Positions 30,271 through 62,241 of a stretch of DNA of 64,000 nucleotides are shown here, piece after piece. The stretch is from Zobellia uliginosa (GTDB taxonomy: Bacteria; Bacteroidota; Bacteroidia; Flavobacteriales; Flavobacteriaceae). Where the stretch lies: contig NZ_FTOB01000001.1 in assembly GCF_900156625.1 (NCBI RefSeq), positions 1,054,001 to 1,118,000 of the forward strand. The letters run 5' to 3'. The stretch's first letter is position 1; every line of letters starts with the position of its first letter. The translations under genes were made by a program, and so were the position numbers. The notes under the pieces were generated by a model that was given only the letters and a program-made list of their open reading frames with translations, did no database searches and was not told the origin of the DNA.

Positions 30271-30296
30271 TAAGGGTTTGTTTTTTTCGTACTGCG

Positions 30297-32675: not shown

Positions 32676-32743
32676 AGAGCGATTTTATCAATTGTTAATG
32701 TAGGAGCTAAATTACTGCCATTTCTTTGCTGAAAATCAAGGAA

Positions 32744-33298: not shown

Positions 33299-33395
33299 AA
33301 ACACAGGGTTCATGTTCATTCCGGATGCCGATAAACAATACAAAACGGGCCAGCCTTGCCAATTAAGAAATTATCGTAATTTTAATGACAATCTT

Positions 33396-35732: not shown

Positions 35733-35852
35733 TTCCGATTTTCATATCCGAACGATTCCCCCTTTTTTACTCAGTAAGTTTGGCCTCTAATTTGGGGAAC
35801 ATCAAAACACTCAAAATTGATAGAAGTCTATCAAAAAAAAAACAAGGCAGAT

Positions 35853-36893: not shown

Positions 36894-36916
36894 GACCATA
36901 TAAGAGATTAAAAATA

Positions 36917-37774: not shown

Positions 37775-37979
37775 AACCTTTAAAATGATAAGACTTATAC
37801 TTATAATAATAGCCTTCGTTCTAACGGTTTATTTTTAATAGACCAAGGTAGATTTATTCCCTAAAAACCTAGTAATCCCATAGTTATACTGTATTGTTAA
37901 AAAAATGATAATATTTCATTATTTGTAAGAATTTATTTATTAACATTGTAATTGTTATAACTAATTAAATTTTAATAAA

Positions 37980-40267: not shown

Positions 40268-40292
40268 TAGTAGCACGGACTGGACTCGGACC
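40268..40292 (-). other. Decayed tRNA 3' end (left boundary of island)
   Basis: On the minus strand this reads as the T arm and acceptor end of a tRNA. It matches 22 of 25 positions of the better preserved fragment at 54304-54328 (differences at two acceptor bases and one T-loop base). The rest of the tRNA is absent. Flanking sequence (GATGGCC plus T run) also resembles the other copy. It is best read as one side of an old insertion at a tRNA gene. Confidence 0.55.
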
Positions 40293-40690
40293 TGACCCCT
40301 CCCCCTATTTAAACAAACAGATTAAAGTTGGAAAGATCGGAGCGAATAAATGTTCAAGTTTAAACCACTATTTGTTTTTTAAGGCTAAAGAATCCCATAA
40401 TCTTAAAAAGGGTACTCTTGTAGATTGCCAATGTGATTTCCTGTTTTTCGATATCCTAAAATTTTAATAAAAACGGCATCATTCAATCCGTGAAAATACG
40501 TTTTGAAGGAGTTTCGGTGTATATATCCTAAGAAAGGAACCACAAAAACATCGAAAATACCTGCACAACACCTGCACAAAATCAATCGGAGCGCTATTTT
40601 TTCGGAAAAAACCTTACTGTTTTTAGAATATTGAAAATCTATCTAATCGTATAGTATATGGGGTGTTTTACTATCAATTTATCAGTAAAA

Positions 40691-40724
40691 AGGTATTTTT
40701 TTGCTTTGTATGTTTTTTGTTGAT
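40691..40724 (+). promoter_or_regulatory. Shared upstream motif, copy 1 (chitinase)
   Basis: This block has the elements AGGTATTT, a GC-TTGTATGTTTT core and TGTTGAT, about 200 bases upstream of the chitinase start. The same string with a small length change recurs at 42817-42846 before the next gene, and the surrounding DNA is not similar. It is a candidate binding site for a common regulator such as the one at 47480. Confidence 0.4.
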
Positions 40725-40924
40725 ATTCTTTCCTCTCTTCAAAGGAAGCAACGATAATATATTTGCGGCTCATTATAATTTCAATTATGGAGCCATCTTA
40801 TGTAACAAACTCTCCTGTACTTAAAAAAGTACAAGGCCCTCCTTAGTTTAGGTGCGTATATTTTTTATTCCTCAATTTTTTACATGTTTAACTCAGGGAC
40901 TTTTATAAGAGTCTCTCAAACTTA

Positions 40925-42538
40925 TTGATTATGAATTCACTAAAAAAGATTATTGGGTCTCTTTTCTTGATTCCCTTTTTGTTTTCGTCCTGTTCCAAGG
41001 AAATCGCTTCCGAGGAACAAAGTTTAGATCCGGAACCGATAACCCCGGTTGCGGCACAGGCCTCATCTGTAGATAAGCCCATTGTTTTGGGGTATTTCCC
41101 GTCTTGGTCCGAAACTTGGGCGGCTTCCGGGCAACCTTCGAAGTTAAGAGATCTTCCGGGGCATATTACTCATGTTTTTCTAGCCTTTGCCAAACCAAAT
41201 TTGAGATACCAAAAGGGTTCTATGTCACTCTCTGGTACAGGTATACAGACACCTTATGACGGTGAGGCCCTCAAAGAGACCGTTTCTATCCTAAAGGCTA
41301 GGGGCACCAATGTCATCCTTTCCATCGGTGGGGAAACCTATTGGGGGTCTCAAGCGGCCTACGACATCGATTACCAACAGATTAAGGATTTTGTCGATGA
41401 CATGGGCTTTCAAGGTATCGATTGGGACTATGAGCCCAGGGGGAGTTTCGCGACCATCGGTGATCCGGAAAACGTACAACACTTTATTGATTTTTTCAAC
41501 AAATCAAGAGCCATCATGCCTAAGGGCGAATACCTTTTGGCCTGTGCTCCTGCAGGTGTAGGGGCCTTGGGAGGTCTAAACAATGACGACCCTGCTTCTC
41601 CCTATGCCTACAGTAAGCGAAATTCCGTAACCGGGGAATCGGACGACAAACTCTATAAGGCCACGGAGCCCAATGAGGCCATCAGTCTTTTTGGCTTCGG
41701 TGCTACCGGACATTTTATTCCCGTTATGAAAGCGGTGGGCGATAAAATCGACCTTGTGGCCTATCAGGGCTACAACACCGGGGCGGCTAGTAATCGTAAG
41801 ATCATGTATGACGCATACAAACACTATGCGGATCAGTACGGCTTCAACATAGCGGCGGGTACCCATTATCCCAATGAGCCTTGGGGCCCACATTACACTT
41901 ATGACTATCAAACAATTGCCGACCTGTCGGAGCATATCGCGGCCAAAAGCCAAAATGACGGTCTAATGATCTGGCAATTGCTGTTGGGCAATGGCAACAC
42001 CTCGTCCTATGGCTATTTGCATGTAGGCAGCCAAATATTGAACGGTGTTTCTAGGTCGACCGCCATAGCCAATGCTGAAAATTATCCCGATGGTGGTAAT
42101 GGAAACCCAAATCCGGATCCAGACCCAGATCCAAATCCAGACCCAGATCCAAATCCAGATCCAGATCCGAACGATGGCACGGATTGCGATTCGGCTGCGG
42201 CATGGAGCGCTACTGCGACCTATACTGGAGGTATGTACAGTACCTACGAAAATTCACTTTATCGAGCCAAATGGTGGACACTGGGCGACCTGCCTACTAG
42301 TGGTGGCGTATGGGAATTTATCGGCAGTTGTTCTGGTGATGAGGGTGGTAATAATGGTAACGATGGGGGCGATTGCTCATCTATTGCCCAATGGAGTGCA
42401 TCAGCCGCCTATCTCGGTAATGCGGAAGTAGTTTACAGCGGAACCGTATATAAGGCGAAGTGGTGGACCAGTGGAGATGTACCTTCTGAAAGCACTGGTG
42501 ACGGTCAGCCTTGGGAGGTGGTACGGTCTTGTAATTAA
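40925..42538 (+). CDS. Secreted GH18 chitinase lipoprotein with two CBM5/12 modules
   Basis: This 537-residue protein has a lipoprotein signal (LFSSC, Cys23). The GH18 domain (about 52-385) has the substrate strand NVILSIGG and the catalytic motif QGIDWDYE: acid Glu170 and two Asp are kept, but the usual first Asp is Gln163. A Pro-Asp-Asn linker (about 398-418) leads to two CBM5/12 chitin-binding modules, each with an AKWWT core. It probably cleaves chitin at the cell surface. It is the first gene of the island and has its own terminator. Confidence 0.9.
   Translation: MIMNSLKKIIGSLFLIPFLFSSCSKEIASEEQSLDPEPITPVAAQASSVDKPIVLGYFPSWSETWAASGQPSKLRDLPGHITHVFLAFAKPNLRYQKGSMSLSGTGIQTPYDGEALKETVSILKARGTNVILSIGGETYWGSQAAYDIDYQQIKDFVDDMGFQGIDWDYEPRGSFATIGDPENVQHFIDFFNKSRAIMPKGEYLLACAPAGVGALGGLNNDDPASPYAYSKRNSVTGESDDKLYKATEPNEAISLFGFGATGHFIPVMKAVGDKIDLVAYQGYNTGAASNRKIMYDAYKHYADQYGFNIAAGTHYPNEPWGPHYTYDYQTIADLSEHIAAKSQNDGLMIWQLLLGNGNTSSYGYLHVGSQILNGVSRSTAIANAENYPDGGNGNPNPDPDPDPNPDPDPNPDPDPNDGTDCDSAAAWSATATYTGGMYSTYENSLYRAKWWTLGDLPTSGGVWEFIGSCSGDEGGNNGNDGGDCSSIAQWSASAAYLGNAEVVYSGTVYKAKWWTSGDVPSESTGDGQPWEVVRSCN
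42104..42173 (+). repeat. Short tandem repeat coding for the PD/PN linker
   Basis: Imperfect 6-base units of the type CCAGAT/CCAAAT/CCGGAT repeat about a dozen times inside the chitinase gene and encode a Pro-Asp/Asn linker between the catalytic domain and the CBMs. Copy number could vary by slippage without changing the frame. Confidence 0.6.
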
Positions 42539-42639
42539 ACCCATATCTCCTATGTTGTTTATGACAGGCCCATGTCAATTATTCAACATGCTTCAAACTT
42601 AAATAGTATAGTCTTAACCTACTAGAATGCGATTGATTA

Positions 42640-42669
42640 GGGACGATAGTGATATCGTCCCTTTTTTTT
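42640..42669 (+). terminator. Terminator of the chitinase gene
   Basis: An 8-base perfect stem (GGGACGAT at 42640-42647 with ATCGTCCC at 42654-42661) and a six-base loop are followed by eight T's. Confidence 0.85.
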
Positions 42670-42816
42670 CAACAAATCATATAAACATCAACCATACGGC
42701 ATCAATATGTTTTTGGTTTAGATCGATAAAATTCCAATAGTCAAGTATTTCTACGGAACATCGGGATGTCCGTCAAATCGGGTAATCCCACCTAGGGAAT
42801 TTTTAAAAGCAGGGCC

Positions 42817-42846
42817 AGGTATTTGGCTTGTATGTTTTCTGTTGAT
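42817..42846 (+). promoter_or_regulatory. Shared upstream motif, copy 2 (GH16)
   Basis: This copy has AGGTATTT, a GC-TTGTATGTTTT core and TGTTGAT, and ends about 100 bases before the 943-residue GH16 gene. It matches copy 1 at 40691-40724 apart from a few bases and a 4-base length difference. Confidence 0.4.
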
Positions 42847-42944
42847 GTCATTCTTAATCATTTACAAAAAATTAAAAATACTTTGGCAGTTAGATTAAAT
42901 CACGAAAGGTGGAAAATTTTTAAAGGAAACTAAAAATTAATAAA

Positions 42945-45776
42945 ATGAAAAATTGTTACACAAAGAAGGAATTTAGGAAGGGGCAAAAGGGAATAGGAAC
43001 ACCGATGTATTTAAAGTCAATCTTATTGGTGTTGATTGGTTCCGTTTTGTTCCTGTCAAATGTTCAAGCTCAGGTAGGCCAAGTTTTATGGGAAGATAAT
43101 TTCGATACGTTTGACGAAAGTTTGTGGACTCCCGACATAGGCGATGGCTGCGCACAGGGTATCTGTGGTTGGGGAAATCAAGAACTTCAGTCGTACGAAT
43201 CCGATAATATATATATAGAAGACGTGCCTGGCGAACCGGGGAACAAGGCCCTGGTACTCGAGGCCAAAAGGGAGAATTCTGGCAGCAAGTCGTTTACTTC
43301 AGGAAAAGTCACCACCAATAAGAAGGTAGCTATACATTACGGTCTTATCGAGGTCAGGGTGCGGGTGCCAGACCTACAGACCGGTCTATGGCCGGCTGTA
43401 TGGCTCTTGGGAACTTCTAATCTGGTATGGCCCGCTAAAGGGGAAATCGATATGATGGAAATGGGCTTTAACCAAGAAGAGCGAACCCGGCAACTGGAAC
43501 CTAATTCTACGGTCAACACCTACACGGGTGCCAATGCCTTTTTTCCAATACCCGATAACGGAGGGGTGGGAAACATCGCTTATGAAGTCGATTATAATAC
43601 GCCCTATGTGGCCGACCGACCGCTAAACGATCGTTTTGTTACCTACAAGCTCTATTGGGAGCCTACGTCCCTGCGCTTTGTGGTTGAGGATGAAGGAACG
43701 GAGTACGATTTGTATGCCGGACCGCTACCCCTGGATCCCGAAGGCGATACTGCTGTTTTTACACGTCCTTTTTATATGTTGCTGAACTTGGCGGTAGGCG
43801 GTAGCTTAACGGGTGTTACGGATCCTAACGGTATCAATGCGCCCCTGCCTGGTAAAATGATGGTGGACTATGTGCGTGTTTCTGAATATAACGGACATGG
43901 AAGCGTAGAATTTGGTGATGGCAGTGACGATCTAGTGGCCGAATCGGGCAACTTTGGCGTGTTCACTGAAAACACCCCAGTGGCGAATAGACTGAATTTT
44001 GGCAGTGATGCCGATATCTTCGTTTTTTCTGAGACCTTTGCCGAAGGTTCTGAAGCGCCTTACGAGGGCGAGGAGGTCATCAGTTGGGAAACTCCCTCAT
44101 CCAATACTTGGTTCGGTGCCGGAATTACCAGTCTGTTCGGTAAAAATATGTCCAATTATGTCGAGGAGGGCACCATGAAGTTCAAGATCAAGATTCCCGC
44201 CGACGTATCCTTCCGTATCGGTATCACCGATAATTTTACCAATGAAAAATATATCACTTTTCCAGCGGGCGAGACCAAATATGGTCTGGTAAGGAACGGT
44301 GAATGGGGGCAAGTAGAGATTCCCCTTTCTGATTATGAGGGCTTGTTGGCTTTTCAAAACTTATCCTATTTGTTCATATTCTCCAGTGACCCCGAGAATC
44401 TACCATCCTCGCCCTTCAAGGTGGCCATCGATGATATTGTCTGGGAAGATGGAAGTGGTGCGATAGGTTGTCAACCTTCGGATATCATCGCCTCTGCCAA
44501 TGTAAATGGTGATGCGACCTCTCAAACGAATTTGACCGTTGGTAGGGGAGATAGCGTGAGCTTAACTCCGGAACCCTTGGAAGGTACTTGGAACTGGTCC
44601 GGTCCCAACAATTTTTCATCGAACCAAAGACAGGTCGATCTCCTTGCTGTCGAGGAGGGTGATGGGGGTAGTTATACGGGAACCTACACCAACGGTTGTG
44701 GCGCCGAGACGACTATTACCTATCGTATTACCATCGATTCCGTTACCTTACCGGAGCCACCGGTCGGAGTGATCAAATCTTGGACCAGTGTCAGCAAGGC
44801 GGGGAATGTTATTAGACATCTTGATGGTCGGGCTGGAATTGCCGATGATGTCGTGCCCGTTGAAGCGGGACAATGGAATATGGTAGCGGGACTTGCCGGT
44901 AGCGGCGTATCGTTTCAATCCGTTGATTTTCCGAACAAATACCTAAGGCATCGGGGTGGAGAGGTTTGGTTAGATGATGTTGAAGATAACACTATGTACA
45001 GAGAGGATGCTACCTTTTTTGAACGGGAAGGATTGGCCGACATCTCGGCGACCTCGTTCGAATCCTTCAACTATCCCGGATATTATCTGCTGCACAGAAA
45101 TTCTCTATTGTACATCGATACCGTGGATACTGATTCGGCAAGAAATGATGCGACCTTTACGGAGAATGGCGAACAGGATAATGATGGTGACGGCAGCTGT
45201 TCTCAGCTTGCGCCCAATAACGATTACACCGTCAAGATAACCGAAAATAGTGAGGGAAGCTTTCTGACTTTTGTACCTGAAAAACCGGGTATCGGAGATA
45301 GCGTGGCCATTCTGTACTATGGTACGGTCGAAAACGGAATTTTTCCCGGTTATAACGTGATGCCCAATGAACCGAAGGCCATTAATGTCGAGCTTGGGCA
45401 GACCGTCTATTTCTACTACACCTACAACGTTCCCGAGGGTGGGGAGCACAATACATCGGCGAACCGACATAGTTTCGAGGTCGGCAGTTGTGCCGCTGCC
45501 GCTGCCGTACAATTCAATGCTTCGGTGTTTGGTTCGGAAGCCCCCGATTGCTTTGTCTATCCGAACCCTGTTCAAGATAGGTTACAGGTGAATATAGACC
45601 GTACGACCGATTATCATACGGCCATTCTAGTAAACGGATTGGGACAGGAATTGGACAGGAAGGACATCAAAAACGGGGAAAGTCCTGTTTTTGAAATGGC
45701 CAGTCTGCCTAGAGGTATTTACTTTATTCGGATGATAGCGGCCGATAGGACAGAAACCGTTAAAGTGATCAAATAG
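42945..45776 (+). CDS. Multimodular secreted GH16 beta-1,3-glucanase with T9SS tail
   Basis: This 943-residue protein has a long charged n-region before the signal peptide (cleavage about residue 43). The GH16 laminarinase domain (about 46-310) has the catalytic EIDMME (Glu167, Asp169, Glu172) and W-rich GLWPAVWLLG. Next come a beta-sandwich CBM-like region (about 345-500), an Ig/PKD-like segment (about 505-595), and an AbfB/CBM42-like beta-trefoil (about 600-730; FPNKYLRHRGG, NYPGYYLLHR). A further binding-type module (about 735-840) and a T9SS sorting domain (from about 862; YPNPVQDRLQV, LPRGIYFIRM) complete it. Beta-1,3-glucan is the likely substrate. Confidence 0.88.
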   Translation: MKNCYTKKEFRKGQKGIGTPMYLKSILLVLIGSVLFLSNVQAQVGQVLWEDNFDTFDESLWTPDIGDGCAQGICGWGNQELQSYESDNIYIEDVPGEPGNKALVLEAKRENSGSKSFTSGKVTTNKKVAIHYGLIEVRVRVPDLQTGLWPAVWLLGTSNLVWPAKGEIDMMEMGFNQEERTRQLEPNSTVNTYTGANAFFPIPDNGGVGNIAYEVDYNTPYVADRPLNDRFVTYKLYWEPTSLRFVVEDEGTEYDLYAGPLPLDPEGDTAVFTRPFYMLLNLAVGGSLTGVTDPNGINAPLPGKMMVDYVRVSEYNGHGSVEFGDGSDDLVAESGNFGVFTENTPVANRLNFGSDADIFVFSETFAEGSEAPYEGEEVISWETPSSNTWFGAGITSLFGKNMSNYVEEGTMKFKIKIPADVSFRIGITDNFTNEKYITFPAGETKYGLVRNGEWGQVEIPLSDYEGLLAFQNLSYLFIFSSDPENLPSSPFKVAIDDIVWEDGSGAIGCQPSDIIASANVNGDATSQTNLTVGRGDSVSLTPEPLEGTWNWSGPNNFSSNQRQVDLLAVEEGDGGSYTGTYTNGCGAETTITYRITIDSVTLPEPPVGVIKSWTSVSKAGNVIRHLDGRAGIADDVVPVEAGQWNMVAGLAGSGVSFQSVDFPNKYLRHRGGEVWLDDVEDNTMYREDATFFEREGLADISATSFESFNYPGYYLLHRNSLLYIDTVDTDSARNDATFTENGEQDNDGDGSCSQLAPNNDYTVKITENSEGSFLTFVPEKPGIGDSVAILYYGTVENGIFPGYNVMPNEPKAINVELGQTVYFYYTYNVPEGGEHNTSANRHSFEVGSCAAAAAVQFNASVFGSEAPDCFVYPNPVQDRLQVNIDRTTDYHTAILVNGLGQELDRKDIKNGESPVFEMASLPRGIYFIRMIAADRTETVKVIK

Positions 45777-45793
45777 AATGCTTAGATAGGAAT

Positions 45794-45825
45794 GTTTACG
45801 GGAAACTCCCCGGTTTCCCGTAAAC
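45794..45825 (+). terminator. Terminator of the multimodular GH16 gene
   Basis: A perfect 13-base stem (45794-45806 with 45813-45825, core TTTACGGGAAA) has a six-base loop and is followed by a T-rich stretch. Confidence 0.85.
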
Positions 45826-46409
45826 CCTATTTTACCTTTTTTGCCTCATTTTTTATTGAACATTAACCTGGCATGCTAGTATGAAAAATATCACACTATA
45901 GCTTTTTAAGGTGGCCGGTACCCTGGTGTACGAATATTTTGGGAAAACGCTTGAGGGAAGGTTTGAGTTCCCTTGATGTCGCGATCGATAATCAGGGCTA
46001 AAGGCTATGTTTTATACGGTTTCAATCGGTGGTGAAATAATGGCCAATGAAGGATTTTTAGTGGACTCATATAAAACGGAAAAACAAGCTCCTTTTCAAA
46101 AGTAGGAGGATTATGTCTATTCTGATACCCTGTCCGTTACCAACACACCCCTCTTCGGAAAATCGCAGCTGATGTTGAGTATTATTGGTATCTTCAACCG
46201 AATACCTTTGTTCGTAGAAACCCTGAACCTAGCTGCCATGACGGTCAGAACTACCAAGGGGCACAGTATTCATCGCGTCAAAAAATTGGGTGCGTTTTGA
46301 ATAGGTAGGGGTATATACATAAAAGTCTCCTTTTCTTATATTTTTTCTAAAAATAAACGTAACCATTTGGTAAACTGTATATTGTATTGCTGGTATTTAG
46401 CTTTGTGCT
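45826..46409. other. Degraded coding-like DNA upstream of the IS66 relic
   Basis: From about 46020 to 46300 one plus-strand frame is open except for a single TAG and reads MLSIIGIFNRIPLFVETLNL...VKKLGAF near its end. It has no start and no family I recognise. It is probably a remnant of a gene destroyed by insertion or deletion next to the transposase relic. Confidence 0.35.
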
Positions 46410-46832
46410 ATGCAAAAAGAAGACACTAAACGAAAACTGTATGCTGTTCCTATTTTAACGGCATTAGAGGTTTGGTTCTAACAACAGACACTTATGGTCC
46501 TTCCTAAAAGCGCTATTGGTAAAGCAATCTCCTACACTCTTAAGTTATGGGGCAAACTCATAGCATACGCTAGTGATGGTAGCTATGAAATAGATAATAA
46601 CCGCATAGAAAATACCATCAGACCATTGGCAATAGGGAGAAAGAACTATTTATTTGCAGGATTACATAAGGCTGCCCAGAAAGCTGCAATGGTATAGTCT
46701 TTCTTTACTACTTGTAAGATTAACAATGTAGATCCCTATACTTGGCTAAAAGATATTTTAGAAAGAATCTCAGACCATAAGGCTAATCGGTTATATGAGT
46801 TGTTACCACATATTTCGGAGGTATCATCATAG
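46410..46832 (+). mobile_element. IS66-family transposase remnant (C-terminal part, two in-frame stops)
   Basis: One frame from 46410 to 46832 encodes the C-terminal part of an IS66 TnpC-type transposase: KLYAVPILTALEVW, VLPKSAIGKAISYTLKLW, the DGSYEIDNNRIENTIRPLAIG block with the catalytic Glu region, KNYLFAGLHKAAQKAAM and NVDPYTWLKDILERI. Stops at 46479-46481 (TAA) and 46695-46697 (TAG) interrupt it, and the N-terminal two-thirds are absent. It is inactive. Confidence 0.85.
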
Positions 46833-47479
46833 AGCAAAGTGGATAACAATAGATTCATCCCTGAGTAATAATTTTGAAACTTTCTAATGCCAATGGCTAT
46901 AAAGGCGGTTATAACATCTCCAGTCAAAGGTATTATATCCAAGTCGTCGTTCTAGCCGTACTTGATAACCAATATTTTTGATATATAGTGAATTACAGGT
47001 TCGCTTAGAGTTACCGCTTATTTACTGTGTACTGAACCTATATTTACTCCAACAAAAGAAAAGAACTGTTAAAAATTACATTTTTCATAGGGTAATGATT
47101 TATGTAATTGTTTTTAAATAAAGATAAGTTTTAAAATTAATACTAGATATAAGACTTTACTTTTAGAATTATCGAACCTGTTTTTATTAAAAAAAAGCTT
47201 TCTTAATTATAAGTGATTTAAATACAGATAAAATATGAAACGAATAGAAAATACAGATCTGGAAAGCGATTTTAGAGCACTTCTTATAAGTCATCCTTCG
47301 TATGGACCCCGCAAAACTAAACTAGAGCTAACTATATATTAGAGCAAATTCAGCGTTTATATGTTCTGGAGCGAAAAACCGGAGATCGGAGTAAGCGTAT
47401 GGTAATGTGCATTGCCATATGTTTACAAACAGACCATACGGTGATATATAAACGTATACAAATTATGTAGGCTGCCAAT
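46833..47479. other. AT-rich debris between the IS66 relic and the regulator
   Basis: No intact gene was seen. A short frame at 47234-47341 (MKRIENTDLESDFRALLISH) and a following one in another phase (LEQIQRLYVLERKTGDRSKR) look like pieces of one former reading frame, but I cannot assign them. The regulator's natural promoter and ATG may have been lost here. Confidence 0.35.
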
Positions 47480-50302
47480 TTGAAAAATCGACGTAATCAT
47501 TTGAAAACACTGTATTTTACAACGCTTTTTTTGACTGCCCTATGCTTAGGGGCGCAGGAACTTCCACCTATACAAAACTATGCGACCTTTGATTACGGGG
47601 CAGAGACCCAAAACTGGGCCATCTCGCAATCCAAGGAGGGCTACCTATATTTCGGTAACAATAGTGGGTTGCTGCAATACGACGGGGAGGATTGGAAAAC
47701 CTATTATACCACTAATCGATCTGTCATTCGTTCCGTAAAGGCCAAGGGCGACCTGATTTACACCGGATGTTACATGGAATTTGGTTATTGGGAAATCAAT
47801 GCCCTTGGAGATCGGGTGTACCGTAGTCTACTTGATAAATTGGAAACCCCTTTGGTGGAGGACGAGGAATTCTGGAACATTCTTATACTGGATCAGTACA
47901 TTTTCTTTCAGTCCCTCAACCGTATCTATATTTATGATACCGATGCCGAGACCTTCAATATAATCGATGCGCCTTCAACTCGTGCACGTATCTTTGAAAT
48001 GGGCGGTACAGTGTTCTTCCAGCGTTCGGGGGAGGGACTCTTTAAGATTGAAGACGGCGGGGCAACCAAAGTTTCGACCCACCCCTTACTTAAGTCTACT
48101 ACGATTATCGGATTGTTCGAAATACAAGATAAACCATTGCTTTTATTGGAGAACGGAACCTTCTTCTTTTTGGAGGATGGGCGTCTATCTCCATGGAAAA
48201 TACCAGCTTCCGATCAACTGGAATCGCTTACCATCTATAGCGGACTGCAACTTATTGACGGTAGTATTATTGTGGGGACTATTGCCGATGGTATCTACCA
48301 TTTAGATGCCGAAGGAAGCATTCTACATCATATCAACCAAGGGGCAGGCCTAGGTAACAACACGATATTGTCTATCTATGAAGATAGGGAACAAAACCTC
48401 TGGCTGGGTCTCGATAATGGCATCAGCGTAGTCAACCTGAACTCTTTTTTCGAGGAATATGTCGACAAGATGGGCACTTTAGGAGTGGTGTACGCCGCCA
48501 CGATTTTCGAAGGGTATCTATACCTAGGCACCAATCAGGGCTTATTCTTCAAAGCTGTGGATGCGACTGGCGATTTTGAGTTTATTGAGAATACGAATGG
48601 CCAAGTCTGGGCCCTGAACGTAATCGATAATACCCTATTCTGCGGGCATAATGAGGGTACTTTTACGGTCAAGGGAGGAAAGGCTAAGCTGATTTCCGAT
48701 TTTCCGGGGTCTTGGGGGGTCAAAAAGATTGCCGACCGGCCCGATCTATTGCTACAGGGGAATTATGGGGGACTCAGTATTTTACATAAAACTGATGATG
48801 GGTGGATACTTCGAAATACCATCGAAGGCTTCGATATTTCGAGTCGTTTCTTTGAGTTCACTAAGAACGGGGAGATATTGGTCAACCATGAGTACAAGGG
48901 TATTTTTACCCTAGAGCTCGATCCCGATTTCCAAAAGGTCGTCGAAATCGATGAAAAACCGCCCAACGGTATGGGGGCCAGCTTGGTCAAGTTCCAAGAT
49001 GATATATTGTTTATGAGTCATCTGGGGGTTTTTGATTATGAAGCTGATTCGAAAACCTTTGTAAAGGACAGTGTTTTTACGGCTAACCTATTTTCCGAGG
49101 AAGAAAGACCTATCGGTATTCTGATGGCCGATGCTTCGGCCGACAGACTTTGGTGTTTTACCAACGCAAATATTCAGTATTTGAGTCCCGGTAACTTTAA
49201 CGAAAGACAACAGCGGGTTCAAATACCGATTCCCGAAGCCTTCCGACGAAATTTGGGTCCTTTGGGTTTTGAGTGTCTTATTCCCCTTCCTGATGATAAA
49301 TATCTGATAGGCATATCCAATGGGTTTGTTACTTTGGATCTTAAAAAACTAGAGGAAAAGGTCTATGACATAAGGCTCAATTCCGTAGCCCTTAAAACCG
49401 ATGATCCCGAGCTAAGCGTAAGCCTTCCAATAGCAGAGAAGGGCGAATTCGAGGCGGGTCAAAATAGCATTGAATTCACCTATAGCATACCCGAATACGC
49501 AAAGTATCTGGAATCCAATTACCAATATCAGCTCGAGGGCCTGCATAGCAATTGGCAAAGTTGGACACTGAGTTCGAAAGCGGTGTTTGAAAAGCTACCC
49601 AGTGGCGATTATGTATTTAAGGTGCGGGCCAAGGCCGGTAATCAACTAAGTGAGAATATTGCATCTTATGCCTTCACTATCGCAAGACCCTGGTATTTTT
49701 CGAAAATAATGATAGTGGTCTATGCGATTTGTTGCTGCCTGCTTTTCTATATGGTTCACCGTGTTTCCCGAGATTTTTACAAAAAACAACAGGCCCGATT
49801 GGAAAAAGAGAGCGCGCGTGAGCTGGAGCATAAGCGCGCCGAGGCCGAAAGGGAGATTATGCGCGTCATGAACGAAAAACTGGAACAGGAAATTAAGGGT
49901 AAAAGCCGTGAACTGGCCATCTCGACAATGAGCTTGATTAAAAAGAACAAATTTTTGAATGCCATCAAGGAAGAGCTTAAGGGGGTTGAGGATCCCAAGG
50001 TAAAGTCCGTTATACGTACCATAGACCGCAACATCAACCATGCCGACGATTGGAAATTTTTCGAGGATGCCTTCAACAACGCCGATTCCGAATTCTTGAA
50101 AAAAATCAAGGCAAAACACCCTGAGCTTACTTCAAACGACCTACGCCTTTGTGCCTATCTTAGGTTGAACCTTACCTCAAAGGAAATTGCCCCGTTATTG
50201 AACATTACCGTGCGCAGTGTCGATGTTAAACGGTATCGCCTGCGTAAAAAAATAGGCCTGTCCCACGATGATGGACTAACGGACTATATATTGAGTATTT
50301 AA
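47480..50302 (+). CDS. Propeller/Y_Y_Y sensor with cytoplasmic LuxR-type HTH
   Basis: This 940-residue protein starts at a TTG (MKNRRNHLKTLYF) with a signal peptide ending at about CLGAQ. The periplasmic part is a two-component-regulator-type beta-propeller (about 30-650) plus a Y_Y_Y domain (about 660-735; FTYSIPEYAKYLESNYQYQL, GDYVFKVRA). A transmembrane helix (about 744-765) leads to a coiled coil and a C-terminal LuxR-type HTH (LTSKEIAPLLNITVRSVDVKRYRLRKKIG). There is no kinase domain. It resembles hybrid two-component regulators of polysaccharide loci with the phosphorelay removed. It likely senses an oligosaccharide released by the neighbouring enzymes. No ATG is available near the start. 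Confidence 0.88.
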   Translation: MKNRRNHLKTLYFTTLFLTALCLGAQELPPIQNYATFDYGAETQNWAISQSKEGYLYFGNNSGLLQYDGEDWKTYYTTNRSVIRSVKAKGDLIYTGCYMEFGYWEINALGDRVYRSLLDKLETPLVEDEEFWNILILDQYIFFQSLNRIYIYDTDAETFNIIDAPSTRARIFEMGGTVFFQRSGEGLFKIEDGGATKVSTHPLLKSTTIIGLFEIQDKPLLLLENGTFFFLEDGRLSPWKIPASDQLESLTIYSGLQLIDGSIIVGTIADGIYHLDAEGSILHHINQGAGLGNNTILSIYEDREQNLWLGLDNGISVVNLNSFFEEYVDKMGTLGVVYAATIFEGYLYLGTNQGLFFKAVDATGDFEFIENTNGQVWALNVIDNTLFCGHNEGTFTVKGGKAKLISDFPGSWGVKKIADRPDLLLQGNYGGLSILHKTDDGWILRNTIEGFDISSRFFEFTKNGEILVNHEYKGIFTLELDPDFQKVVEIDEKPPNGMGASLVKFQDDILFMSHLGVFDYEADSKTFVKDSVFTANLFSEEERPIGILMADASADRLWCFTNANIQYLSPGNFNERQQRVQIPIPEAFRRNLGPLGFECLIPLPDDKYLIGISNGFVTLDLKKLEEKVYDIRLNSVALKTDDPELSVSLPIAEKGEFEAGQNSIEFTYSIPEYAKYLESNYQYQLEGLHSNWQSWTLSSKAVFEKLPSGDYVFKVRAKAGNQLSENIASYAFTIARPWYFSKIMIVVYAICCCLLFYMVHRVSRDFYKKQQARLEKESARELEHKRAEAEREIMRVMNEKLEQEIKGKSRELAISTMSLIKKNKFLNAIKEELKGVEDPKVKSVIRTIDRNINHADDWKFFEDAFNNADSEFLKKIKAKHPELTSNDLRLCAYLRLNLTSKEIAPLLNITVRSVDVKRYRLRKKIGLSHDDGLTDYILSI

Positions 50303-50619
50303 GCCCCCTAACATACCTATGCCCTATCACAACATTATCACTACAACTTGCTACTTATCCTCTTTTTTGTACTGTTTAATCATATGGACTATAATCGCGG
50401 AACCCTAATAACTACAGTATGTTGTACTCGAATTCCTACGTTGTCTTAATTTATTTTACGTGATGTATACATTTTGTATTGCAGCCTTATTTAAATCTTT
50501 TTGTGTGAACTGATAAATTAGCGGTGTTAAAAAATAATAGTGGCCGTTGTGCAGACTTAGCTCAACTCGCCCATATCATGCCCCATTTATTACTGTAAAA
50601 ATTAATTAAACGAAATGCT
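50303..50619. promoter_or_regulatory. Leader region of the GH64-GH16 pair
   Basis: 317 bases without a gene, AT-rich, ending in an A-rich stretch before the ATG at 50620. There is no clear hairpin, and the shared motif seen at 40691 and 42817 is not convincingly present. Confidence 0.3.
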
Positions 50620-52497
50620 ATGAAAACATTCTACTTTACACTGTTATATCTAATTCTTGGAGGGGCCCTTTTGAGTGCTCAGACCCTGCCTTATCAGATT
50701 GCGAACAACTCGGAGTTCCCTGATGATGAAGTTTACGTGGCCGTAGTCGGCGAAATTGGAGGCTTCGTTTGGGTAGACCCCGTAAATGGACAGGTCAATA
50801 GGATGTCCCGTTCCGATAATACCGTACCTGGCCCTGTCATTAACGGCAATCTCGGTCCCGGACTTGACGGTCGCTACGCGAATTGCTTCAGGAAGTTGAG
50901 CGACATCCCTGGTAAAACGGTAAACATCCCAAAAATTGCAGGATGCCGTATCCTGATTTCTTTTGGAAGTCCCCTCTATCTCTATTTTTTTGGGTATGAT
51001 GGTGACCCAAGGGGATATGCGGCTCCCAACCTAGAGAACCCCACAGACCCGAACCAGGGAATTACATTTGAATCCATCGAACTTACCTATAACGAGTTCG
51101 GAATCTTTAACAATACCTCGAGGGTAGATGCCTTTCAATATCCTATCGGACTCGAAGTCGAGGGAGTCAATTTCTTTAAAAAGGTCGGGGAGTTGAAATC
51201 CTCACAGGAAATTCAGGATGAATGGGCAAGAACGGCCCCGCCCGAATTTCAGGGGCTTTTAAAAAGAGATCAAGGTATCATAAAGTTTCCCACCAAAGAC
51301 GATAGCTTTCCGACGAATTATATGGACGGCTACATCGATGCCATTTGGTCGAAATACCGTAATGCCGAACTTTATTTCAACTCTGGGGATGCCGGCCGAT
51401 GGAGAGGTAGGGTACAGGGTGATAATTTTGTATTTACACGGGAAAGCGATGGCCAGGTGGCCACCATCCCCGGAAAACCTACCACGCTTATGGCAATGGA
51501 AGGCAGTGGTGTCATGGCCTCCGGGCAACGTTGGGACTTGGTGGTGCAGGCTCAGATGGTCGCTGCGATCACACGTCACGCTATCGACTTGAACGCACCT
51601 TCGGGAGCCTTTCAGGATTTCGGGGACGCTTCAAGATATTATCAGGTAGAACCTTATAATTGGTACTCGAAATTCTTTCACAGAACGGACATCAGTTTCG
51701 AGGGCCAGACCTACACGTTTGCCTATGATGACGTATTCGACCAATCGTCGACCATTAGTACCGGACAGCCTCTTCGCGCAAAGATTACCCTTGGCCCGAT
51801 CAAGGTAGACGGCGATGGAGATGCTACCGATCCCGACCCCTTGCCTTCACGGCTGATCGAGGCGGAAAGCTTTTCCTATTTCAACGGCGTACAAAAGGAA
51901 GCCTGCTTTGAAGGTGGCGAGAACGTCGGTTATATCAATAAGGGCAGTTGGATGGCCTATTCCGATATCAACTTTCCGTCTTCAGGAAATTATTTGATCG
52001 AGTATCGCGTGGCCAGTGCCATCGACGGCGGTCGGTTTTCTTCCGATCTGGAGGCAGGCAAAACGGTGCTTGGTGAACTTTCGGTACCCAACACTGGAGG
52101 ATGGCAGAATTGGACTACCATTTCACAAACGGTCAATGTAAATGCAGGAACGTATCAGTTCGGTCTCTATTCGATTTCGGGAGGATGGAACATCAACTGG
52201 ATTCGCATTACCCCACAAGGGAACTCCACGGCCTTACGGGCCGATTTGACTCAAGAGGCCATAAGTGAAACGAACACCGTCATGTATCCGAACCCCTTCT
52301 TCGATACGGTGACCTTCGGAAGAGGGGAAGGCGAAATAGATGTTATGATCCTAAACATAGAAGGTCGTGAAGTATTGGCGCCACATACGTTGAAAGCCGG
52401 TAGTTCCCTCGATTTGTCGACTCTCGAAAAGGGAATGTACATCGTAAAGATGAAAACAGGTAGCGGGGAGAAAACCCAGCGTCTTCTTAAAAATTAA
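50620..52497 (+). CDS. Secreted GH64 beta-1,3-glucanase with CBM6-like module and T9SS tail
   Basis: This 625-residue protein has a signal peptide (GGALLSAQ, cleavage about residue 21). The GH64/thaumatin-like domain (about 24-395) includes LPYQIANNSEFPDDEVYVAV, SRVDAFQYPIGLEVEGV and YYQVEPYNWYSKFFHRTD. A CBM6-type beta-sandwich follows (about 410-535; EAESFSYFNGVQKEAC, GGWNINWIRI), then a T9SS sorting domain (MYPNPFFDTVTFG, LEKGMYIVKM). GH64 enzymes release laminaripentaose from beta-1,3-glucan. The CBM is nearly identical in DNA to that of the next gene. Confidence 0.9.
   Translation: MKTFYFTLLYLILGGALLSAQTLPYQIANNSEFPDDEVYVAVVGEIGGFVWVDPVNGQVNRMSRSDNTVPGPVINGNLGPGLDGRYANCFRKLSDIPGKTVNIPKIAGCRILISFGSPLYLYFFGYDGDPRGYAAPNLENPTDPNQGITFESIELTYNEFGIFNNTSRVDAFQYPIGLEVEGVNFFKKVGELKSSQEIQDEWARTAPPEFQGLLKRDQGIIKFPTKDDSFPTNYMDGYIDAIWSKYRNAELYFNSGDAGRWRGRVQGDNFVFTRESDGQVATIPGKPTTLMAMEGSGVMASGQRWDLVVQAQMVAAITRHAIDLNAPSGAFQDFGDASRYYQVEPYNWYSKFFHRTDISFEGQTYTFAYDDVFDQSSTISTGQPLRAKITLGPIKVDGDGDATDPDPLPSRLIEAESFSYFNGVQKEACFEGGENVGYINKGSWMAYSDINFPSSGNYLIEYRVASAIDGGRFSSDLEAGKTVLGELSVPNTGGWQNWTTISQTVNVNAGTYQFGLYSISGGWNINWIRITPQGNSTALRADLTQEAISETNTVMYPNPFFDTVTFGRGEGEIDVMILNIEGREVLAPHTLKAGSSLDLSTLEKGMYIVKMKTGSGEKTQRLLKN
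51889..52203 (+). repeat. CBM6-module direct repeat, copy 1 (in GH64 gene)
   Basis: A 315-base segment encoding the carbohydrate-binding module is repeated at 53461-53775 with few differences; a central run of more than 100 bases is identical. The flanking catalytic domains are unrelated. Confidence 0.85.
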
Positions 52498-52632
52498 TAA
52501 GATGGTTTAAGCCATTCACCAACTCTTTTTCAATGGCCGTCGGAAGGGTTTAATTGTCGGTCTCCTATTCCGGCGGACATTTATTATTACAGTTTTTTAA
52601 AATTTAATTGACAACCCCAAAATTAGAACAAG

Positions 52633-54081
52633 ATGAGAAAAATTACGATCTATTTACTAATGGCCTTGTGCTTTGGCCTGGCCCCGATGCTTTCGGCCCA
52701 AAATTACAACTTGGTCTGGCAAGATGAATTCGATGATGTTATTGGCCCTGATTGGGTCTTTGAGACCGGCATGAACTATATGGGCTGGGGCAACAATGAA
52801 TTGCAGTATTACAGACGCGAAAACGCCCATGTCGAGAATGGCAATTTGGTAATTACCGCAAAACGTGAGAATTTCGGCGGTGCCCAATATACTTCGGCGC
52901 GAATGAAGACCCAGGGTCGGAAGAGTTTTAAGTTCGGAAAAATTGAGGCTAGGATCGCATTGCCTTCAGGTCAAGGACTATGGCCCGCGTTCTGGATGCT
53001 CGGGAGCAATATTACCAGTGTGAGCTGGCCTGCCTGTGGGGAAATAGATATCATGGAGCGCGTCAATAACGATCTACGGACCTACGGTACCATCCATTGG
53101 CCCGATGAAAATGGCGACGTGGTCTCCTATGGTGACGGCGTAGGTGTAAGCGATCCTGGGCAGTATCATGTCTATGCCATTGAGTGGGATACGGACTCCA
53201 TCAAGTGGTTCGTTGACGGGCAGCAGTTTCACGAGGCGGATATTAGTAACGGTATCAACGGTACTGGCGTATTCCAGAACGAGTTTTTTATTATCCTGAA
53301 CATGGCAGTAGGAGGTGATTGGCCGGGATTCGATGTGGACCATAGTAAGCTTCCGGCCGAAATGTTGGTAGATTACGTAAGGGTCTACCAAAAGGGAGAT
53401 GACAATGATAATACTAACGCCCTTCAAATCGAGGCCGAAAGTTATTTACATTCCAACGACGTACAAAAGGAAGCCTGCTCTGAAGGTGGCGAGAACGTCG
53501 GTTATATCAATAAAGGCAGTTGGATGGCCTACCCGGGTATCAACTTCCCGTCATCGGGAAATTATTTGATCGAGTATCGCGTAGCCAGTGCCGTCAACGG
53601 CGGTCGGTTTTCTTCCGACCTGGAGGCAGGCAAAACGGTGCTTGGTGAACTTTCGGTACCCAACACTGGAGGATGGCAGAATTGGACTACCATTTCACAA
53701 ACGGTCAATGTAAATGCAGGAACGTATCAGTTCGGGCTCTATTCGATTTCGGGAGGATGGAATATCAACTGGATCAAAATCACAAAGCTGGGCAATGCTC
53801 GGGCGGCCCAGACCATGAATTCCGCTTTGATAGTTGCTGACGATGATATTTCCCAAGAAATTAGGGTATATCCCAACCCTTTTACGGAATACGTGTCCGT
53901 TAATTTTGAGGGGGGGACGGCGAACCTGATCCTTCAGGATATGTTAGGTACGGTTATCTTTACTAAATCGGGCGTTTCAGCTGATGAATCCGTCGATTTA
54001 TCGGGACTAAAAAGTGGTATGTATTTCTTGACCATTGAACAAGGCGGAAAGTCTACTGTTAAGCAGTTGGTCAAAGAGTAG
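52633..54081 (+). CDS. Secreted GH16 laminarinase with CBM6-like module and T9SS tail
   Basis: This 482-residue protein has a signal peptide (PMLSAQ, cleavage about residue 22). The GH16 domain (about 24-255) has WGNNELQYYRREN, GLWPAFWMLG and the catalytic EIDIME (Glu137, Asp139, Glu142), the pattern of endo-beta-1,3-glucanases such as flavobacterial LamA. The CBM6-like module spans about 268-390, and the T9SS domain follows (VYPNPFTEYVSVNF, LKSGMYFLTI). It starts 136 bases after the GH64 gene in the same orientation, so the two form a laminarin-degrading pair. Confidence 0.92.
   Translation: MRKITIYLLMALCFGLAPMLSAQNYNLVWQDEFDDVIGPDWVFETGMNYMGWGNNELQYYRRENAHVENGNLVITAKRENFGGAQYTSARMKTQGRKSFKFGKIEARIALPSGQGLWPAFWMLGSNITSVSWPACGEIDIMERVNNDLRTYGTIHWPDENGDVVSYGDGVGVSDPGQYHVYAIEWDTDSIKWFVDGQQFHEADISNGINGTGVFQNEFFIILNMAVGGDWPGFDVDHSKLPAEMLVDYVRVYQKGDDNDNTNALQIEAESYLHSNDVQKEACSEGGENVGYINKGSWMAYPGINFPSSGNYLIEYRVASAVNGGRFSSDLEAGKTVLGELSVPNTGGWQNWTTISQTVNVNAGTYQFGLYSISGGWNINWIKITKLGNARAAQTMNSALIVADDDISQEIRVYPNPFTEYVSVNFEGGTANLILQDMLGTVIFTKSGVSADESVDLSGLKSGMYFLTIEQGGKSTVKQLVKE
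53461..53775 (+). repeat. CBM6-module direct repeat, copy 2 (in GH16 gene)
   Basis: This is the second copy of the segment at 51889-52203, offset by 1572 bases without insertions or deletions. Differences concentrate in the first half, so the 3' half looks recently homogenised. Confidence 0.85.
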
Positions 54082-54263
54082 CATTCTATCGCCCTATATA
54101 AAAACTGACAAAGCAATTAATGATTGATAGAATACCATACGAAGCTTAGGAAATACCTGAATTTTTTAATTGTTAGACTGTGTGGGTCGGTGCTGCTTCT
54201 AATCTTGGCGGTACCGACCCTGGTCTTTATTCCTGTAAATCGAAAAAATGTCGGGAAGAAAAA

Positions 54264-54297
54264 AAGCCATTTATCTGAAAACTCAGATAAATGGCTT
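54264..54297 (-). terminator. tRNA-associated terminator hairpin
   Basis: A perfect 15-base stem (54264-54278 with 54283-54297, AAGCCATTTATCTGA and its complement) has an AAAC loop and runs into a T tract on the minus strand. It lies just past the acceptor end of the tRNA fragment and is probably that gene's original terminator. Confidence 0.85.
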
Positions 54298-54303
54298 CTT
54301 ATT

Positions 54304-54349
54304 TAGTAGCGGGGACTGGACTCGAACCAGCGACCTTCGGGTTGTGGGC
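54304..54349 (-). pseudogene. 3' half of a decayed tRNA gene (right boundary of island; Met-type suspected)
   Basis: Reading the minus strand gives the 3' anticodon-stem side (AACCCGAAGG), a complete T arm (CTGGTTCGAGTCCAG) and the acceptor strand CCCCGCT plus A. The 5' half, D arm and acceptor 5' strand are absent. The loop remnant CCCACAA differs by two T-to-C changes from the CTCATAA expected for a CAU anticodon, so an initiator-Met-type origin is my best guess. Its first 25 bases recur at 40268-40292. Confidence 0.65.
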
Positions 54350-54551
54350 TTTATACCCAATTTTAACAACAGTTTTATTGAGGGCAATGGCTATAAAATT
54401 CTAAAATCGCATCATTTATTTTTCATTTAACTTATTTAAATTAAAGTGTTAGTATCGGTTCTGTCGATTAAAATTAGTGTGCTTAACTTAATAGTCGAAT
54501 CTGTAATTTAGTATAAGTCAAATGTTTTAAGGGATTTAGGTCTTTTATTGT

Positions 54552-55772
54552 TTAATTCCTGTTTTTTTTGACATTTTCAATAATTATAGCGTAACCCATA
54601 CCAACGCCTACACACATAGTTGCCAATCCGTATTTTCCACCGGAACGAATTAATTGATTTGTTGCAGCCTGAATAATGCGAGTGCCTGACATTCCTAAAG
54701 GGTGCCCTAGAGCAATAGCACCTCCATTAGGATTTATTCTTGTATCGTCATCAGCTAAACCAAGTTCACGTATGCAAGCTAATGCTTGCGAGGAAAAAGC
54801 TTCATTGAACTCCATGACATCCATATCACTTAACTTTAAACCAGCTTTTAGTAAGGCTTTTTTGGTGGCATAAACAGGACCTATTCCCATAATTCTTGGT
54901 TCTACACCAACCACGGCAGAAGCCACAATTCTTGCTTTTGGGGTTAAATTGTACTTTTTCAAAGCATCTTCAGAAACAACTAACATTGCAGCTGCACCGT
55001 CATTTAACCCTGATGAATTACCAGCTGTAACACTACCATCTTTTTTGAATACGGTTCTTAAAGTAGATAGTTTTTCTAAAGTTGTACTAGGACGTATAAA
55101 TTCGTCTTGGTCCACAACCATCGGATCTCCTTTTCTCTGTGGAATATCTACTGGGCAAATCTCTTCAGCCAAGATTCCGTTTTGTTGTGCTTTGGAAGCT
55201 TTCATTTGAGAATTGTATGCAAACAGATCTTGATCTTCGCGGCTAATGTTGAATAGCTCAGCTAAGTTTTCAGCAGTAACGCCCATAGCATCTGTACCGT
55301 ACATTTCTTTTAATTTAGGATTCACAAAACGCCATCCGAAACTGGAATCCTCCATTTTTGAATCATTGCCAAATGCTATAGAAGCCTTTGACATCACGTA
55401 GGGTCCACGAGACATATGCTCCATACCGCCTACAATAAAAACATCACCGTCACCGGCTTTAATGGCTCTATTGGCTTGAACTACAGTAGACATACCCGAT
55501 GAGCATAATCGATTGACCGTTTCTCCTGGTACTGAATATGGAATACCTGCCAGAAGCAATGCCATACGGGCAACATTTCGGTTGTCTTCGCCTGCTTGGT
55601 TATGACACCCTAAAATAACGTCATCGATAACATCTTTGGGCAAGTTTGGATATTTTTCAAGTAAAGCTTTTATGGGGATCGCTGCCAAATCATCTGCTCT
55701 GATTGGAGCCAGAGCACCTCTAAAACTTCCTATTGGTGTTCTTAATGCGTCAACTATATATGCTTCTTTCAT
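54552..55772 (-). CDS. pcaF: Beta-ketoadipyl-CoA thiolase
   Basis: This 406-residue thiolase has the acyl-enzyme Cys90 in NRLCSSGMS, the GHPLG motif with catalytic His, and the second Cys in TMCVGVGMG. By context it cleaves 3-oxoadipyl-CoA to succinyl-CoA and acetyl-CoA, the last step of the beta-ketoadipate pathway; by sequence alone it could be a general acetyl-CoA acyltransferase. It is the final gene of the operon, 4 bases after the CoA-transferase. Confidence 0.9.
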   Translation of the reverse strand: MKEAYIVDALRTPIGSFRGALAPIRADDLAAIPIKALLEKYPNLPKDVIDDVILGCHNQAGEDNRNVARMALLLAGIPYSVPGETVNRLCSSGMSTVVQANRAIKAGDGDVFIVGGMEHMSRGPYVMSKASIAFGNDSKMEDSSFGWRFVNPKLKEMYGTDAMGVTAENLAELFNISREDQDLFAYNSQMKASKAQQNGILAEEICPVDIPQRKGDPMVVDQDEFIRPSTTLEKLSTLRTVFKKDGSVTAGNSSGLNDGAAAMLVVSEDALKKYNLTPKARIVASAVVGVEPRIMGIGPVYATKKALLKAGLKLSDMDVMEFNEAFSSQALACIRELGLADDDTRINPNGGAIALGHPLGMSGTRIIQAATNQLIRSGGKYGLATMCVGVGMGYAIIIENVKKNRN

Positions 55773-55776
55773 TCTT

Positions 55777-57120: not shown

Positions 57121-57132
57121 AATTGTTTGTCG

Positions 57133-58326: not shown

Positions 58327-58335
58327 GTGGTGCTA

Positions 58336-59466: not shown

Positions 59467-59470
59467 AGTG

Positions 59471-60781: not shown

Positions 60782-60795
60782 AACAATTTTTCTGA

Positions 60796-61332: not shown

Positions 61333-61341
61333 AATTTTAGG

Positions 61342-62216: not shown

Positions 62217-62241
62217 CATACACTTGTTTTAAATACACATT

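What the first reader, a model, noticed from the sequence alone, without database searches (positions are those of the whole stretch)
40268..54349. Fourteen-kb polysaccharide island bounded by two decayed 3' ends of the same tRNA
The minus-strand string at 54304-54328, the T arm and acceptor end of a tRNA, recurs at 40268-40292 with 22 of 25 matches, and flanking T-rich sequence is also alike. Everything between is chitin and beta-1,3-glucan degradation plus IS66 debris. Duplicated tRNA 3' ends are the usual footprint of tyrosine-recombinase integration. No integrase is visible, so the element would be an old, immobilised island. The tRNA type (Met-like) is a guess.
Basis: partly seen in the sequence, partly recalled or inferred. 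Interest (0 to 1): 0.72.

Follow-up and report, generated by a model that had tools for sequence, protein, structure and literature searches.

The report
Tandem sugar-degradation islands at tRNA-Met
In a seaweed-associated marine bacterium, a 14-kb block of chitin- and beta-glucan-degrading genes sits between two worn copies of the end of the same methionine tRNA gene; it looks like one unit of a stack of DNA islands that inserted one after another at that tRNA, a site used repeatedly in this bacterial family to pick up extra genes.

Summary
Observation confirmed. Both strings are 3' halves of one tRNA-Met(CAT) gene. The only place in the genome within 3 mismatches that is an intact tRNA lies on another contig, 262 bp from its end. 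The genus is Zobellia. Both halves and the 14-kb enzyme block recur in G004 (probably Z. galactanivorans) at 90-93% identity; the other 7 of 9 Zobellia genomes give only weak partial matches (4) or none (3). In 6 of 9 genomes displaced tRNA-Met halves lie on the tRNA's own contig, 3' of it and in its orientation; spacings are 14-41 kb, and Z. russellii has three units in a row. A tyrosine recombinase starts 27-50 nt after the tRNA end at three such sites. In 149 genomes of the family, 20 of 49 matches to this recombinase lie within 1 kb 3' of such a tRNA end, all on its strand, none on the 5' side. Corrections: the island is one of at least two stacked units, the pca cluster beside it belongs to the next, and the missing integrase has probably decayed. 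A single 14-kb insertion is inferred, not shown. New member of a known kind.

The parts
54303..54348 (-). Displaced 3' half of tRNA-Met(CAT) (upper att remnant, frag1): anticodon loop to 3' end plus one A
   Evidence: 44 of 46 nt identical to the whole tRNA's core; whole copy at G000:C19:59652-59725
54259..54297 (-). Terminator-like hairpin and T run after frag1; part of the left end of the 14-kb unit, of the type found at the tRNA in G004
   Evidence: read from the sequence, no terminator scan run; 81 bp at 89% to the left end at the G004 tRNA
40268..40292 (-). Decayed 3' end of the same tRNA-Met (lower att remnant, frag2): T arm and acceptor strand
   Evidence: 22 of 25 nt; same substitutions in G004
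40293..54302 (.). 14-kb cargo unit (element B) between the two remnants; no recombinase found
   Evidence: G000 and G004 of 9 Zobellia genomes; no PF00589 hit in the window
40925..42538 (+). GH18 chitinase-like protein with CBM5/12 modules
   Evidence: Pfam
42945..45776 (+). GH16 enzyme with AbfB domain and secretion-sorting tail
   Evidence: Pfam
46494..46697 (+). IS66 transposase fragment
   Evidence: Pfam DDE_Tnp_IS66 9.7e-20
47480..50302 (+). Regulator-like protein with Y_Y_Y domain and a weak propeller-repeat match
   Evidence: Pfam
50620..52497 (+). GH64 beta-1,3-glucanase with CBM6 and sorting tail
   Evidence: Pfam
52633..54081 (+). GH16 enzyme with CBM6 and sorting tail
   Evidence: Pfam
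54361..54412 (-). Right-end sequence of the next element (element A), adjoining frag1
   Evidence: 79% over 52 bp to two Z. amurskyensis element ends and 80% over 46 bp to the Z. russellii E1 end; 0 of 500 shuffles reach either of the two scores tested
54552..62049 (-). Protocatechuate (pca) catabolic gene cluster, cargo of element A (thiolase by Pfam; other names by my reading of the translations)
   Evidence: translations, thiolase; 74% DNA identity to a stretch inside Z. russellii element E1
23620..37842 (.). Flank beyond the array; lies 3' of tRNA-Met on one contig in Z. amurskyensis (with gaps); pieces also on the tRNA's contig in G001, G006, G007

Best explanation
The two tRNA pieces are displaced attachment-site halves left by successive integrations into the 3' end of one tRNA-Met(CAT) gene. 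Each incoming element recombines its attP with the 46-nt core that runs from the anticodon loop to the 3' end. The element's own copy of the core rebuilds the tRNA, and the old half with its terminator is pushed to the far end. In order from the tRNA: whole tRNA-Met (contig C19); element A (at least 28 kb, pca and carbohydrate cargo); frag1; element B (the 14-kb glucan/chitin cargo); frag2; chromosome. Shown: the tRNA identity, the core, orientation, tandem arrays and adjacent recombinases in relatives, presence or absence of the cargo, persistence in G004. Inferred: that C19 and C16 join across a gap, that B entered as one piece, that B's recombinase was lost, and the recombination chemistry.
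For: One whole tRNA-Met in the same genome and no further copies within 3 mismatches. All 9 Zobellia genomes searched carry the core. Relaxed scan of 582 kb in 11 stretches: 22 copies, 0 on the other strand. 8 stretches hold the whole tRNA, and the 9 displaced halves on them all share its orientation; the other 3 stretches (5 halves) have no tRNA and I turned them by the halves themselves, so only their mutual agreement counts. Spacings of 13.7-40.8 kb. Full-length recombinase ORFs begin 27-50 nt after the core at 3 sites; 8 of 22 Zobellia sites have the recombinase or a remnant 3' of them. Family sample of 149 genomes: 20 of 49 recombinase rows within 1 kb 3' of a core, all same strand, 0 on the 5' side; 23 of 23 neighbouring core pairs under 100 kb apart in the same orientation. 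93 exact-core stretches in named genomes: 62 with a 5' half within 3 mismatches, 29 displaced, 2 cut by an end. Frag1's other side is an element right end; the C19 tRNA's 3' side matches element left ends. Flank order agrees on one Z. amurskyensis contig.
Against: No recombinase in the window and none of this subfamily in the own genome at E 1e-20. No recognisable element right end beside frag2: the lowest shuffle fractions in 14 comparisons were 0.012 and 0.03, both in the wrong register. GC of the 14 kb (44.1%) is close to the flank (43.3%). C19 and C16 ends do not overlap, so the join is not shown. 2 of 9 Zobellia genomes (G003, G008) show no displaced half in what I fetched. 29 of the 49 recombinase rows are not within 1 kb of a core, and the search model was built from recombinases picked because they lie at this tRNA, so the association leans that way. 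In the family sample I did not tell whole tRNAs from displaced halves except in 6 genomes.
Confidence: 0.86

Rival explanations
1. The fragments mark two integrations, but the 14 kb between them is not one element: it is a composite left after deletions and later insertions, with the original element mostly gone.
For: No integrase, no right end beside frag2, an IS66 remnant, and 318 bp (46191-46508) with no counterpart in G004. In Z. russellii and Z. amurskyensis the sequence next to frag2 (W39032-40208) follows an att copy at 1.6-2.6 kb, with two or three other ORFs between; in G001 a homologue of the 39034 gene lies instead just before a displaced half.
Against: The block is colinear in G000 and G004 and coherent in function; the left end at frag1 is of an element type.
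Confidence: 0.25
2. Tandem duplication of the tRNA-Met gene followed by decay, without any mobile element.
For: Copies are tandem and in one orientation.
Against: 29 copies with an exact core have 14-26 mismatches in the 31 nt just upstream, where the 5' half should be; units between copies differ in content between genomes; 18 recombinase rows start 42-57 nt after a core.
Confidence: 0.03
3. Chance similarity outside any tRNA family.
For: Frag2 is only 25 nt of good match.
Against: 0 control matches in 5.3 Mb, 0 on the other strand in 582 kb, conservation in G004, 44 of 46 nt for frag1.
Confidence: 0.01

Closest known systems
Tycheposons (cargo-carrying tRNA-associated elements of Prochlorococcus; tRNA-Met(cat) type in Methylophilaceae, PMC10872708, abstract and passages seen)
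   Same: tRNA-Met(CAT) at the border, tyrosine recombinase, sizes within 4-200 kb, metabolic cargo
   Different: The recombinase here was not compared with tycheposon recombinases, and tycheposon core genes were not tested; here units stack in tandem and carry glycan, aromatic or restriction genes
ICECleSHZ29-like ICEs (Chryseobacterium, PMC12561888, abstract and passages seen)
   Same: Insert at the 3' end of a tRNA-Met-CAT gene in flavobacteria, direct repeats at both ends
   Different: Conjugative backbone and a 17-bp repeat of another sequence; here the core is 46 nt, and PF03432 and PF12696 have no hit in the Zobellia arrays
Riemerella anatipestifer 10K and 50K genomic islands (PMC6764341, PMC9745183, passages seen)
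   Same: Integrase next to a tRNA, direct repeats at both ends; integration and excision were tested there
   Different: Arg-tRNA for 10K and a tRNA not named in the passages for 50K; no tandem array in the passages seen; other repeats
Islands at tRNA hotspots with tandem accretion (for example Klebsiella asparagine tDNAs, PMC4891358, search listing with start of abstract only)
   Same: Different islands at one tRNA type
   Different: Other hosts, tRNA and cargo

Membership tests
tRNA-targeted genomic island (tyrosine recombinase type) | Direct repeats of a tRNA 3' end at both borders | tested here: met
tRNA-targeted genomic island (tyrosine recombinase type) | Patchy presence in sister genomes | tested here: met
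   2 of 9 genomes hold the block
tRNA-targeted genomic island (tyrosine recombinase type) | Integrase gene at the border (common, not required; PMC6764341 passage: 'often harbor integrases') | tested here: not met
   Not in the 14-kb unit; 8 of 22 Zobellia sites have the gene or a remnant
tRNA-targeted genomic island (tyrosine recombinase type) | Excision and re-integration | not testable with these tools
   needs an experiment; unlikely for this decayed unit
Tycheposon | tRNA border plus tyrosine recombinase plus cargo | tested here: inconclusive
   Met at some sites in relatives; recombinase absent from the window unit
Tycheposon | Recombinase and core genes related to the Prochlorococcus elements | not tested
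   no reference sequences fetched
ICE / IME | Relaxase and coupling protein or mating-pore genes | tested here: not met
   PF03432 (hits in 3 of 9 genomes) and PF12696 (hits in 5 of 9) have no hit inside any Zobellia array; only these two families were searched
Prophage | Virion genes | tested here: not met
   None among Pfam matches of the 6 ORFs of the unit that were scanned; a related recombinase does sit on a prophage in G130

The most novel reading that the evidence does not exclude
The Zobellia arrays belong to an undescribed family of flavobacterial cargo islands with a fixed three-gene head: recombinase, g2 (about 220-260 aa) and g3 (about 140-170 aa, Cys-rich N terminus). They stack at tRNA-Met and shuttle whole glycan-use, aromatic-degradation or restriction gene sets between genera without conjugation genes of their own; g2 and g3 would be their excision or transfer factors. 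The window's 14-kb block would be a headless, domesticated relic of this family.
Probability: 0.4. Interest if true: 0.68.

Novelty: new member of a known kind. Interest (0 to 1): 0.48.

Why it matters
Polysaccharide-degradation gene sets are thought to move between marine Bacteroidota (recalled), but the vehicle is often unclear. Here one tRNA gene with a recognisable scar and a linked recombinase subfamily gives a way to order and roughly date such gains: position in the stack gives relative order, and decay of each tRNA half gives age. It turns 'this gene set looks horizontally acquired' into a testable integration history for Zobellia, and perhaps for the fifth of sampled genera that hold the recombinase (32 of 148 genera).

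Tried and rejected
Rejected: overlap of contig ends C19 and C16 (none). A resemblance I saw by eye between the sequence upstream of frag2 and right-end family A did not survive shuffling. Composition: GC is no help; the tetranucleotide distance of the 14 kb from the flank (0.125) exceeds that of 14-kb windows of the flank (0.053-0.079), but those windows are part of their own reference. Further decayed tRNA halves in 199 kb of extra flank: none. Structures of g2 and g3 from three sequences each: mean pLDDT 47.6 and 57.4, too poor for a fold search. g3 in phage and plasmid records: no match. The fold leaves the first base unpaired and puts three G-C pairs at the foot of the anticodon stem, which I recall as initiator features, so it is more likely the initiator. 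A regex search with indels timed out and was replaced by a mismatch scan.

Literature: six searches aimed at Zobellia, tRNA-Met, islands or polysaccharide loci showed no paper on these arrays in what they listed: 20 of 71; 2 of 2; 20 of 129; 4 of 4; 20 of 1,283; 15 of 78. Searches (tycheposon, 8 of 8; tandem accretion, 10 of 18) gave comparisons. Beyond listings I saw passages of four papers only.

Not done: tree of the recombinases, phylogeny of the cargo, family scan of all element ORFs (20 chosen ORFs, 10 of L011), what lies beside the 29 recombinase rows not near a tRNA-Met core, and any analysis of L170 (G137) or of the whole 3' side of G003 and G008. The genome search scores a capped number of candidates per genome (for example 33 of up to 69 and 33 of up to 58, 10 of up to 18), so its counts are lower bounds.
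Full report
What was checked. The two strings are real, at the stated places and with 22 of 25 matches. No whole tRNA is in the window. A genome-wide pattern search with up to 3 mismatches gives three places and no control match: the two window copies and a whole tRNA-Met(CAT) at C19:59652-59725, 262 bp before that contig's end. The upper copy matches it over 44 of 46 nt, from the anticodon loop to the 3' end; the lower copy keeps only the T arm and acceptor strand well. The tRNA folds with its first base unpaired and three G-C pairs at the foot of the anticodon stem; I recall these as marks of the initiator tRNA, but no call tested the type.

Where this is. The window is G000:C16:1054001-1118000, genus Zobellia. 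Sister genomes G007, G002 and G008 have contigs whose lengths equal those of Z. russellii KMM 3677, Z. amurskyensis KMM 3526 and Z. uliginosa C3R17. G004 is one contig of 5,521,712 bases, which I recall as the length of Z. galactanivorans DsijT.

Sister genomes. All 9 Zobellia genomes searched carry the core. A relaxed scan of 582 kb found 22 copies (the C19 tRNA is not among them) and none on the other strand. In 6 genomes (G001, G002, G004, G005, G006, G007) a total of 9 displaced halves lie on the same contig as the whole tRNA, 3' of it and in its orientation. G000 has its two halves on another contig than its tRNA, and G002 has three more on two other contigs; those stretches were turned by the halves themselves. 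G003 and G008 show none in what I fetched. Z. russellii has four cores in a row, 37, 38 and 34 kb apart. G004 has the whole tRNA, then 28.4 kb, the counterpart of the upper fragment, 13.7 kb, and the counterpart of the lower one with the same substitutions. The 13-kb enzyme block matches G004 at 90-91% in two pieces; G001, G003, G005 and G008 have only short partial matches at 63-94%, and G002, G006 and G007 none (33 candidates scored per genome at most). The DNA upstream of the tRNA is 91.5% identical between G000 and G004, so the block has diverged about as much as the chromosome and was probably there in their common ancestor.

Order in the chromosome. In Z. amurskyensis one contig holds the whole tRNA-Met, a displaced half 31.5 kb on, and then most of the DNA that flanks the array at window 23620-37842. 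Pieces of window 31235-37774 lie on the tRNA's contig, on the same relative strand, in G001, G006 and G007 too. In G003 and G008 they are on other contigs, in G005 more than 1 Mb away, and G004 has no match.

The recombinase. Full-length ORFs begin 27-50 nt after the core at three Zobellia sites, one in G001 and two in G007; a truncated one follows the core in G002:C3. PHROGs calls the G007 E1 protein an integrase at 2.4e-32; Pfam gives it a SAM-like domain and a sub-threshold PF00589 match, while G001 and the second G007 protein pass that cut-off. N-terminal remnants lie at four further sites, making 8 of 22. G008 has a different recombinase about 1 kb from its tRNA. An alignment of 8 members (A1), picked because they lie at this tRNA, finds 49 rows in 32 of 149 family genomes (148 genera) at E 1e-20, none in G000; two genes are split over two rows each, and G001's own protein is in the alignment. 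20 of the 49 rows (19 genes) lie within 1 kb 3' of a core, 18 rows at 42-57 nt, all on the core's strand; none lies within 1 kb on the 5' side; 29 rows are not near a core. The core with up to 3 mismatches is in 99 of 149 genomes; 23 neighbouring pairs less than 100 kb apart all have the same orientation, 0 opposite, though I did not sort whole from displaced copies there. In named genomes the exact core has 93 stretches: 62 with a 5' half within 3 mismatches, 29 displaced, 2 cut. A Maribacter MAG recombinase is 93.6% identical over 439 aa to that of Z. russellii E1, and one of Maribacter stanieri 97.4% over 272 aa, which argues for recent transfer between genera.

What the window holds. The 14-kb unit (element B) runs from the upper to the lower fragment. 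Its left end resembles that at the tRNA of G004 (81 bp, 89%). It carries GH18, two GH16, GH64, a regulator and an IS66 remnant. The other side of the upper fragment is the right end of another element: 52 bp at 79% to two Z. amurskyensis ends and 46 bp at 80% to Z. russellii E1, with 0 of 500 shuffles reaching the two scores tested. Z. russellii E1 also carries a pca cluster, 74% identical in DNA to window 54568-63109. The rest of element A up to the end of C16 holds transporters, a sulfatase, GH43 and dehydrogenases. The tRNA on C19 is followed by 77 bp at 80.5% to the left end and integrase start of Z. amurskyensis C3, and 75 bp at 76% to Z. russellii E1. The last 64 bp of C19 resemble DNA beside the G004 tRNA (75%) where an ISL3-type transposase lies; an insertion there could explain both the broken recombinase and the contig break. 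I infer that element A spans the gap between C19 and C16.

Wider content. In six other genera fetched, the units at this tRNA include SusC/SusD-type genes (G128, G068; SusD in G136) or DNA-methylase genes of restriction type (G120, G035), and in G130 a prophage with a related recombinase (10 ORFs scanned, the rest read by eye). No relaxase (PF03432) or TraG (PF12696) match falls inside a Zobellia array; other conjugation families were not searched. A gene g2 and a Cys-rich gene g3 often follow the recombinase: of 29 g3 rows in 21 of 149 genomes, 20 lie within 2 kb 3' of a recombinase on its strand, 18 of them at 726-802 nt; 9 do not. The g3 model too was built from genes picked beside recombinases. 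Of the g2 and g3 proteins scanned, g2 has at best a sub-threshold DUF2023 match (0.0013), and g3 weak PHROGs matches, the best over its first 40 or so residues to HNH endonucleases at 7.9e-6. In 50,697 phage records the Maribacter MAG recombinase finds 11, at 25-35% identity; g3 finds none there or in 72,556 plasmids.

How sure. That both fragments are integration scars of one tRNA-Met site: high. That the 14 kb is a single former element: moderate, since its recombinase and right end are gone. That the C19 and C16 ends are neighbours: likely but not shown. Published precedents are tRNA-Met-targeted ICEs in flavobacteria (PMC12561888), tRNA-associated islands in Riemerella (PMC6764341, PMC9745183) and tycheposons with a tRNA-Met border (PMC10872708); for all four I saw passages found by search terms, not the whole text.

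Noticed in passing
L005:5653-5726 (tRNA-Met on C19): The integration target looks like the initiator tRNA: first base unpaired, three G-C pairs at the foot of the anticodon stem (these marks are recalled). Each integration would then have to rebuild an essential gene.
   Followed up: partly
window 51856-52211 and 53427-53774: The CBM6 modules of the neighbouring GH64 and GH16 genes are nearly identical in protein by eye, and each matches the other gene's module in G004 at 91 and 87% DNA identity; perhaps a copied or converted binding module.
   Followed up: no
window 46191-46508: 318 bp beside the IS66 remnant have no counterpart in the otherwise colinear G004 block.
   Followed up: no
G130:C1:1767001-1817000 (L173-L175): A prophage (portal and tail genes) uses a related recombinase at the same tRNA-Met, with no g2 or g3 seen, so phages and cargo islands share the site.
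   Followed up: partly
L005:5823-5964 (near the end of contig C19): A direct repeat of about 70 bp, two copies head to tail, lies between the tRNA-Met and the contig end (read).
   Followed up: no
window 54248-54430 (+): A 60-aa ORF antisense to the tRNA half reads ...DWTRTSDL..., an ORF type I recall as a common false gene call over tRNAs.
   Followed up: no
G001:C1:4210242, 4260464, 4298261: Three more full-length recombinases of the same subfamily lie far from tRNA-Met; their target sites were not looked at.
   Followed up: no
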